Source of the DNA: Actinomycetota bacterium
Lineage (GTDB): Bacteria > Actinomycetota > Acidimicrobiia > IMCC26256 > PALSA-555
Assembly: GCA_003140175.1 (NCBI GenBank)
Contig: PLJD01000025.1
Coordinates: forward strand, 132,828 to 187,006
Reading direction: 5' to 3'
Length of the DNA stretch: 54,179 nt
The notes below the pieces were generated by a model. The model saw only the letters and a list, made by a program, of their open reading frames with translations. It was not told the DNA's origin and made no database searches. A program made the position numbers and the translations under genes. This document shows positions 36,576 through 36,941 of this stretch, piece after piece (the first letter of the stretch is position 1; each line of letters opens with the position of its first letter).

Positions 36576-36941
36576 TTACGGACGAAGTCTCAAGATGAGG
36601 TGCAGCGTGCTTCCGTCGGGGATGTTGTAGTCAGCGAGCGATCTGCCATCCTCGAGCTGTTTCCCGGCGTACAGCAACCGCTGCTGGTCCGGGGGGATGC
36701 CCTCCAGGTCCTGAATCGTCTCCTTGACATTTTCGATCGTGTCAGTTGGCTGCGCACCAACCTTGAGGGTCTTTCCAGTGAGCGTCTTCACGAAGATCGT
36801 GAACTCCTGGGACGTCCCGGCGTGAGCGGCGTGAGCCGGGCGGTGGTGGATGAGGGTGAGCCCCAAACCCACGCCAACCCCGATGACCACGACCGCGGCG
36901 CCGGCCCAGAGCCACCGGACGCGACCGCCACTACCGAGCAT
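36576..36941 (-). CDS. Membrane-anchored or secreted ubiquitin-domain protein
   Basis: 121 residues. After a short basic N-terminus (GGRVRW) comes one hydrophobic segment, LWAGAAVVVIGVGVGLGLTL (about 11-30), then HHRPAHAAHAG with AxA sites that a signal peptidase could cut. Residues 47-121 are a ubiquitin fold: 54 of 72 positions between Ile3 and Arg74 of human ubiquitin are identical (IFVKTLTGKT, DTIENVK, EGIPPDQQRL, AGKQLEDGR, STLHL). Lys6, 11, 27 and 48, Leu8 and His68 are kept; Lys29, 33 and 63 are lost; it ends RLRP instead of RLRGG. 17 of 75 domain codons end in A/T, including two AGA, unlike neighbours. The start could also be GTG 36974. No E1, E2, ligase or deubiquitinase gene is nearby. 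Confidence 0.88.
   Translation of the reverse strand: MLGSGGRVRWLWAGAAVVVIGVGVGLGLTLIHHRPAHAAHAGTSQEFTIFVKTLTGKTLKVGAQPTDTIENVKETIQDLEGIPPDQQRLLYAGKQLEDGRSLADYNIPDGSTLHLILRLRP

What the first reader, a model, noticed from the sequence alone, without database searches (positions are those of the whole stretch)
36576..36941. Bacterial protein with a near-eukaryotic ubiquitin domain behind a membrane anchor or signal peptide
Residues 47-121 match human ubiquitin at 54 of 72 positions (3-74), far above the level of ordinary ubiquitin-like folds in bacteria (ThiS, MoaD, Pup is unrelated). The domain is preceded by a basic stretch and one hydrophobic helix, with Arg on the N-terminal side, so by the positive-inside rule the ubiquitin would face outside or be released at the AHA-AHA-G sites. 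The Ile44-type patch is kept (Leu8, Leu for Ile44, His68, Ile for Val70) as is Lys48, while Lys63, 29 and 33 are lost. A secreted ubiquitin is known from Bacteroides fragilis; an actinobacterial, ribosomal-operon-linked case is new to me. It could imitate host ubiquitin, act as a structural domain, or be a recent acquisition.
Basis: partly seen in the sequence, partly recalled or inferred. Interest (0 to 1): 0.95.

Follow-up and report, generated by a model that had tools for sequence, protein, structure and literature searches.

The report
Exported tailless ubiquitin in an actinobacterium
A bacterium of the class Acidimicrobiia carries, in one extra gene that 60 searched relatives lack, a protein whose core is three-quarters identical to human ubiquitin; it has lost the tail by which ubiquitin is attached to other proteins and is predicted to be exported, so it likely acts outside the cell as a binding partner or weapon rather than as a protein tag.

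Summary
The minus-strand gene 36576-36941 (possibly from GTG 36974) encodes a hydrophobic helix followed by ubiquitin: 54 of 72 core positions match human ubiquitin, Pfam ubiquitin E 9e-27. It is a bacterial locus, not a chimera: a 707-base insert of atypical composition lies between truA and a phosphodiesterase gene that nearly abut in the same-genus genome, and the protein is listed on 10 contigs, the longest 379,815 bases, against 187,006 here. None of 60 relatives has it. The closest described counterpart is BfUbb of Bacteroides fragilis, a secreted, tailless, strain-variable ubiquitin toxic to rival strains (PMC5705921); missing tail and variable slot match, mature N-terminus and C-terminal cysteine do not. 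Best reading: a separately acquired, exported, non-conjugable ubiquitin that likely works in competition; target and topology are untested. In passing: other Acidimicrobiia carry ubiquitin-fusion genes, many in tandem, beside a methyltransferase gene (14 of 22 genomes); I found no description of it.

The parts
36501..37207 (.). 707-base insert between the 3' ends of the phosphodiesterase gene and truA; the only recognised gene in it is the ubiquitin gene
   Evidence: in G001 (same genus) the two genes' tblastn-aligned ends are 11 bases apart, in G003 35, in G002 5; GC 0.638 vs window 0.697; only 2 of 535 overlapping sliding windows less typical by 4-mer model; single copy in own genome
36576..36941 (-). 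ubiquitin gene, 121 aa from ATG (P0001); alternative GTG start at 36974 gives 132 aa
   Evidence: only PF00240 match in the genome
36982..36986 (-). GGGGA, possible ribosome-binding site for the GTG start at 36974
   Evidence: read from the sequence printed; inference
36849..36914 (-). hydrophobic stretch, residues 10-31 (WLWAGAAVVVIGVGVGLGLTLI), after Arg7 and Arg9: predicted membrane anchor or long signal peptide
   Evidence: Kyte-Doolittle; topology by positive-inside rule is inference
36804..36848 (-). linker HHRPAHAAHAGTSQE (residues 32-46) with two AxA-type candidate cleavage sites
   Evidence: sequence; cleavage is inference
36579..36803 (-). ubiquitin domain, residues 47-121 (ubiquitin positions 1-75)
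   Evidence: 54 of 72 identical to human ubiquitin at 3-74; PF00240; structure model and PDB match
36576..36590 (-). C-terminal end R-L-R-P-stop (positions 72-75): no Gly-Gly, hence no conjugation tail
37208..37999 (-). truA (tRNA pseudouridine synthase), upstream neighbour on the same strand
   Evidence: PF01416; found in 10 of 11 family relatives
34782..36500 (+). phosphodiesterase / alkaline-phosphatase-type gene, convergent neighbour; open frame from 34782, true start uncertain (35052-36500 was used as query and begins at no start codon)
   Evidence: PF01663; beside truA in 7 relatives, not in the stretch fetched in 3

Best explanation
This Acidimicrobiia genome carries a one-gene insert that encodes a ubiquitin without its Gly-Gly tail behind a hydrophobic segment predicted to carry it across the membrane, where it would likely act as an antagonist of neighbouring bacteria, in the manner of the secreted ubiquitin BfUbb. 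Shown: the gene, its ubiquitin identity, the lost tail, the clean insertion site and the absence from the relatives searched. Inferred: a eukaryote-type ubiquitin sequence was acquired separately from the other Acidimicrobiia ubiquitin genes; export by the Sec route with the ubiquitin outside; display on the membrane or release by cleavage at the AHA sites; expression possibly by read-through from the ribosomal-protein/truA operon (same strand, no terminator-like site found between); action by binding a target through the preserved Ile44-type face, since conjugation through the C-terminus is not possible without Gly76. The target is unknown and killing is untested.
For: Core 54 of 72 identical to ubiquitin, tail missing. 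Hydrophobic stretch after two Arg, AHA sites. Solitary gene at the truA-phosphodiesterase junction; of 10 relatives with truA located, 3 have the genes nearly abutting, 4 have other small genes there (alpha/beta hydrolase with an export-type N-terminus in 4 of 4; PemK-type toxin in G007; PIN domain plus ribbon-helix-helix frame in G009 and G011, the latter's helix match just under Pfam's cut-off), 3 lack the phosphodiesterase in the stretch fetched. This resembles the B. fragilis ubb slot: 13 of 97 genomes with ubb, 73 with HigBA instead, 11 with nothing (PMC5705921, section 9). BfUbb too is exported and tailless and acts alone on sensitive strains. No terminator-like site in 36400-37300. Presence on 10 contigs and absence from 60 relatives fit accessory cargo.
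Against: No killing, binding, export or expression data. BfUbb's mature N-terminus coincides with ubiquitin residue 1 and it ends in Cys; here a linker precedes the domain and there is no Cys. BfUbb uptake reportedly uses a Bacteroides SusCD transporter (title of a reference only), which Acidimicrobiia would not offer (recalled). The 22-residue hydrophobic stretch is long for a signal peptide and may anchor the protein, which would limit it to contact. No partner gene lies in the insert, though BfUbb seems to need no immunity protein. The Ile44 face is not significantly better kept than the rest (2 of 14 vs 16 of 58 changed, p 0.49).
Confidence: 0.38

Rival explanations
1. Recently acquired ubiquitin that is kept only as a stable exported fold (a spacer or small surface protein) or is on its way to loss, with no ubiquitin-specific binding role.
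For: Own genome only among 61; atypical composition; changes spread over the molecule without a favoured face (2 of 14 vs 16 of 58); ubiquitin domains appear as building blocks in larger surface proteins elsewhere (L005 with BspA-type repeats; L049 with an LPxTG-type anchor match and a sub-threshold fn3 match).
Against: Open frame without stops; substitutions at positions 13, 15 and 17 (buried, recalled) are I to L, L to V and V to A; the protein is listed as 2 member sequences on 10 contigs, so it persists.
Confidence: 0.3
2. The ubiquitin is displayed on the outer face of the membrane or released to imitate eukaryotic ubiquitin, binding ubiquitin receptors or enzymes of grazing protists as a decoy that cannot be conjugated.
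For: Near-eukaryotic sequence; canonical face L8, L44, H68, I70 and K48 kept; BfUbb inhibited ubiquitination in human cell extract.
Against: BfUbb's covalent bond to E1 was attributed to its C-terminal Cys, absent here. No delivery route into eukaryotic cells was looked for. Habitat and hosts are unknown.
Confidence: 0.19
3. The membrane helix places the ubiquitin on the cytoplasmic face, where it acts inside the producing cell.
For: Topology was only inferred; no experimental or SignalP-type test; one Arg and two His follow the helix.
Against: Arg7, Arg9 (and Arg/Lys of the longer form) before the helix favour the domain outside by the positive-inside rule. The annotated neighbours are truA, rplQ, rpoA and a phosphodiesterase, not ubiquitin-pathway genes; one PF00240 match in the genome. 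E1, E2 or deubiquitinase genes elsewhere in the genome were not searched for.
Confidence: 0.09
4. Artefact: eukaryotic contamination or a chimeric contig.
For: Contaminating contigs do occur in such genomes: the PF00240 hits of G147 lie on retrotransposon-like contigs with reverse-transcriptase-like sequence. Read coverage could not be checked.
Against: The gene lies inside a 187,006-base bacterial contig between genes whose order is conserved in relatives; the protein is on 10 contigs, one of 379,815 bases; GC3 0.80 and an N-terminal half of bacterial export type; one uninterrupted frame.
Confidence: 0.03

Closest known systems
BfUbb (ubb) of Bacteroides fragilis (PMC3352274, PMC5705921)
   Same: Eukaryote-like ubiquitin core (BfUbb 63% identical to human over 76 residues; here 54 of 72), N-terminal export-type sequence, no Gly-Gly tail, found in some strains only, in a chromosomal slot that other strains fill with toxin-antitoxin genes or leave empty.
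   Different: BfUbb has a 27-aa signal peptide cut before residue 1, a C-terminal Cys and glycosylation motifs; here the hydrophobic stretch is longer, a 15-residue linker precedes the domain, there is no Cys, and the host is an actinobacterium.
Secreted ubiquitins seen here in Flavobacterium notoginsengisoli (L004, two tandem genes), a Hyphomonadaceae MAG (L003) and Ruminococcus albus plasmid pRUMAL01 (L058, WP_013483628.1)
   Same: Signal-peptide-like N-terminus (my reading) then ubiquitin.
   Different: The domain begins at or next to the apparent cleavage site; L003 ends LRLRGG, L058 continues into a further region, one L004 copy ends TPPCN.
Acidimicrobiia and allied ubiquitin-fusion proteins (L002, L045-L054, L066-L088)
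   Same: Same class or phylum; near-eukaryotic ubiquitin (e.g. L046 second copy 51 of 72 to the window).
   Different: Most start at MQIF without a hydrophobic segment and carry a C-terminal beta-strand-rich or fn3 part; 14 of 22 genomes have a methyltransferase gene beside them.
Eukaryotic ubiquitin
   Same: Fold and face; the best eukaryotic domain among those cut from the 120 listed proteins has 55 of 72.
   Different: No Gly-Gly, export segment added, not in a precursor of repeats.

Membership tests
Ubiquitin family (Pfam PF00240) | profile match over the whole domain and ubiquitin fold | tested here: met
   93.1 bits vs cut-off 25.4, profile 1-72; Foldseek TM 0.94 to ubiquitin
Conjugable ubiquitin modifier | C-terminal Gly-Gly, free or exposed by processing | tested here: not met
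   chain ends R74-P75-stop
BfUbb-type secreted antagonist | N-terminal signal peptide leading to secretion | tested here: inconclusive
   hydrophobic stretch with AHA sites; no SignalP; anchor equally possible
BfUbb-type secreted antagonist | no C-terminal Gly-Gly | tested here: met
   BfUbb
BfUbb-type secreted antagonist | mature chain starts at ubiquitin residue 1 | tested here: not met
   15 residues between hydrophobic stretch and domain, six of them after the last AHA site; BfUbb
BfUbb-type secreted antagonist | C-terminal cysteine | tested here: not met
   no Cys in the protein; BfUbb
BfUbb-type secreted antagonist | growth inhibition of rival strains | not testable with these tools
   needs purified protein
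Acidimicrobiia methyltransferase-linked ubiquitin fusions | methyltransferase gene next door and C-terminal second domain | tested here: not met
   no methyltransferase or TAT-protein hit in the window; nothing after the domain
Bacterial ubiquitin-like conjugation operons (Bil/CBASS type, recalled) | E1/E2/peptidase genes in the operon and a processable C-terminus | tested here: not met
   neighbours are truA, rplQ, rpoA and a phosphodiesterase; no PADLOC match for the ubiquitin gene or the phosphodiesterase; no Gly tail

The most novel reading that the evidence does not exclude
Acidimicrobiia have repeatedly taken up eukaryotic ubiquitin and turned it into a non-conjugated protein ligand: once as the exported, tailless form of this window, and elsewhere as tandem ubiquitin-fusion genes served by a dedicated methyltransferase. 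Ubiquitin would then be a general-purpose binding module in bacterial competition, independent of the tagging chemistry that made it famous.
Probability: 0.3. Interest if true: 0.85.

Novelty: new variant of a known kind. Interest (0 to 1): 0.62.

Why it matters
In the papers read here BfUbb is the only bacterial ubiquitin of near-eukaryotic sequence with a tested function. A second, apparently independent exported and tailless ubiquitin, in a different phylum, suggests that the fold is useful outside the cell without conjugation and gives a direct test of whether killing or binding is a shared property. The wider set in Acidimicrobiia, including methyltransferase-linked tandem genes, would open a question that can be tested at once by expression and pull-down.

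Tried and rejected
A 35-residue reading frame just downstream of the ubiquitin stop looked like a gene remnant; among 61 genomes it matched itself (E 1.2e-18) and five others only at E 0.38-0.74, so it was dropped. A second copy of the insert in the own genome: none. Relatives of the N-terminal part (residues 1-52): none in the protein collection but itself. Annotated phages: none. IMG/VR: 9 stretches matched a peptide pattern, none confirmed; that search, like the one of genome contigs, uses exact peptides of the window protein and reaches close relatives only, so one search's five loci are no census (B. fragilis is not among them). Rfam in the window: none at the gathering score. Flanking repeats that would mark the insertion: only short, imperfect or chance-like matches. 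Sigma-70 promoters or terminators in 36400-37300: none. NCBIfam: only a sub-threshold rad23 match.

Donor by tree: 47 domain rows, 74 columns, 3 of 44 inner branches well supported; the window row is a long branch of unsure place; the 13 bacterial rows need 7 changes (bootstrap 6-9) but well-supported branches force only 1, so several acquisitions are likely, not shown. Of 88 domain rows 9 were dropped by hand (misaligned, truncated or irregular at an end), and of the 66 remaining eukaryotic rows 34 were used. Only the best 120 of 7963 protein hits were listed, so the eukaryotic side is a sample. G147 was discounted from the class tally as retrotransposon-like contigs. The second domain of the Acidimicrobiia fusions was not identified: mean pLDDT of that model was 70.2 and Foldseek showed ubiquitin-containing structures among the 50 rows printed.

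Literature: ten searches listed no paper on an actinobacterial eukaryote-like ubiquitin, judged by titles and abstract starts; one search showed 12 of 108 papers and 15 of 19; most subscription papers are not in that library. Jiang et al. 2023 (10.1038/s41564-023-01541-5) and Tong et al. 2024 (10.1038/s41467-024-53149-w) were seen only as reference entries; the latter is not held, the former was not looked up by id.

Full report
Observation. The minus-strand frame 36576-36941 encodes a hydrophobic N-terminal part followed by a ubiquitin domain. Pfam ubiquitin scores 93.1 bits against a cut-off of 25.4. An AlphaFold model from 11 sequences is confident over residues 51-120 and poor before them; the 50 Foldseek rows printed are ubiquitins, ubiquitin variants or ubiquitin chains, led by 5ifr_B with TM 0.94 and rmsd 0.8. 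The frame also contains a GTG at 36974 with a GGGGA seven bases upstream, so the protein may be 132 aa.

The chain ends ...LRLRP-stop, so positions 75-76 (Gly-Gly) are missing, and there is no cysteine. K6, K11, K27 and K48 remain; K29, K33 and K63 are changed. Without Gly76 it cannot be activated or attached in the eukaryotic way (established knowledge of the ubiquitin pathway). The Ile44-type face is kept with two conservative changes, but it is not significantly better conserved than the rest (2 of 14 versus 16 of 58 changed, p 0.49; face residues recalled).

Reality of the locus. The window is bases 132828-187006 of contig C65 of the own genome (4.25 Mb, 128 contigs, 94.5% complete, 0.98% contaminated); C65 is 187,006 bases long. 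The protein collection lists this protein as a cluster of 2 member sequences on 10 contigs, the longest 379,815 bases, so at least one other contig carries it; whether that contig is from another sample is not known. The RpoA relatives that bear an organism name are called Acidimicrobiia bacterium (P0128 at 94%; P0172, P0175 and P0231 at 89-91%) or Actinobacteria bacterium (P0211, 89%); P0128's longest contig has 102,301 bases, the length of the same-genus contig G001:C111.

In that genome, with the same order rpoA-rplQ-truA / phosphodiesterase / rplM-rpsI-glmM-glmS, the aligned ends of truA and the phosphodiesterase gene are 11 bases apart; in G003 35 and in G002 5; in the window 707 bases lie between them and hold the ubiquitin gene (junctions). 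Of 11 family relatives truA was found in 10: 3 nearly abutting, 4 with 975-1958 bases of other genes, 3 without the phosphodiesterase in the stretch fetched; the ubiquitin gene gave no match in any of these ten stretches. The four filled sites carry one alpha/beta hydrolase each with an export-type N-terminus (my reading), with a PemK-type toxin in G007 and a PIN domain plus a ribbon-helix-helix frame in G009 and G011 (the helix match in G011 is just under Pfam's cut-off). The insert has GC 0.638 against 0.697 for the window; 18 of 535 overlapping sliding windows have lower GC and only 2 are less typical by a 4-mer model. GC3 of the gene is 0.80 against 0.85-0.92 for eight neighbours. These facts fit a small horizontally gained cargo in a variable slot.

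Distribution. PF00240 is matched in 0 of 60 relatives (1 of the genus, 10 of the family, 46 of the order, 3 of the class); the order search covered the 57 nearer ones of these again. It is matched in 10 others of 395 class genomes drawn and in 2 others of 396 phylum genomes, both already in the class list. One of the ten, G147, is discounted as contamination. The N-terminal part has no relative. A narrow search of the named genome collection returned five loci: an Actinomycetota MAG (L002), a Hyphomonadaceae MAG with a signal-peptide-like start and LRLRGG end (L003), Flavobacterium notoginsengisoli with two tandem signal-peptide-like ubiquitins (L004), a Lachnospiraceae surface protein (L005) and a remote Lokiarchaeota match (L006). 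The plasmid collection gave a secreted ubiquitin with a further region in Ruminococcus albus and a weak Pseudoalteromonas match that was not followed. So exported ubiquitin domains recur in bacteria; the window's is a separate architecture.

Mechanism. Two Arg precede a 22-residue hydrophobic stretch and PAHAAHAG follows; by the positive-inside rule the domain would be outside, either tethered or released (inference; Kyte-Doolittle maximum 2.32). The gene follows truA on the same strand with no terminator-like site found between, so read-through from the ribosomal-protein operon is possible (inference). The nearest tested protein is BfUbb: signal peptide, ubiquitin core, no Gly-Gly, carried by some strains, sitting where other strains have HigBA or nothing, and inhibiting 13 of 40 B. 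fragilis strains as a synthetic 76-residue chain, while bovine ubiquitin was inactive in the assay shown (abstract and sections 8, 9, 11 of PMC5705921; abstract and sections 10, 12 of PMC3352274). By this analogy the most likely role is antagonism of related bacteria by binding a target; I give it 0.38. Against: no C-terminal Cys, an added linker, an uncertain signal peptide, and a host without the Bacteroides import route (recalled). That a periplasmic prolyl isomerase is the BfUbb target is recalled and was not seen in any call.

Membership. It is a ubiquitin-family protein. It is not a conjugable modifier. It shares some but not all defining features of BfUbb, so it is filed as working like it, not as a member. 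It is not one of the methyltransferase-linked fusions of its class and not part of a ubiquitin-like conjugation operon.

Class-wide lead. In one Acidimicrobiia genus (g48) 15 of 21 genomes carry ubiquitin genes, 10 of the 15 with two or three matches. Most start at MQIF without a hydrophobic segment, run through LRLR into a beta-strand-rich part, and many end in FTG. In 12 of the 16 positive genomes of that family a class I methyltransferase gene lies upstream on the same strand (in G758 with about 680 bases between), as it does in G280 of another family and in L002. In 9 of the 12 a short protein with a twin-arginine-type start precedes it. No methyltransferase was seen in G220 (its contig begins at the ubiquitin genes), G767 and G760 (about 1.5 kb upstream examined), G778, G381, G239, G073 and G325: 14 of 22 genomes with, 8 without. 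I found no description of this arrangement in two searches (titles and abstract starts seen).

Noticed in passing
L045, L046, L047, L081-L086, L066, L067, L075, L076 (genus g48); L050; L002: Conserved bacterial gene block: class I SAM methyltransferase followed by one to three eukaryote-like ubiquitin-fusion genes (ubiquitin plus beta-strand-rich part, many ending FTG), preceded in 9 genomes by a short twin-arginine-type protein; 12 of 16 ubiquitin-positive genomes of the family, plus two outside it. Possibly more novel than the window gene.
   Followed up: partly
L004 7292-7582 and 7935-8228: Flavobacterium notoginsengisoli carries two tandem secreted-type ubiquitins, one ending TPPCN, with a Cys near the C-terminus as in BfUbb.
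   Followed up: partly
L058 3935-4675: Ruminococcus albus 7 plasmid pRUMAL01 encodes a signal-peptide-like start plus ubiquitin plus a further region, near a dockerin gene and an integrase/transposase gene.
   Followed up: no
L049 319-1344; L005 2357-6787: Ubiquitin domains in surface-type proteins: with an LPxTG-type anchor match (and a sub-threshold fn3 match) in an Acidimicrobiia genome, and with BspA-type repeats and a VPKTG plus hydrophobic end (my reading, no Pfam anchor match) in a Lachnospiraceae genome.
   Followed up: no
L037 2339-4296, L038 4601-6290, L039 2406-4053, L041 2110-3084: The truA-phosphodiesterase junction is a variable slot in this family: alpha/beta hydrolase genes in four relatives and toxin-antitoxin-type genes in three of them.
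   Followed up: partly
G147 contigs C18 and C19 (L055, L056): Retrotransposon-like contigs with a ubiquitin stretch and reverse-transcriptase-like sequence inside a bacterial genome: probable eukaryotic contamination.
   Followed up: no
window 29178-32609: Unusually long glmS-type frame of 1143 aa, matched along most of its length in a relative (L042, 1-1112); its extra stretches were not examined.
   Followed up: no
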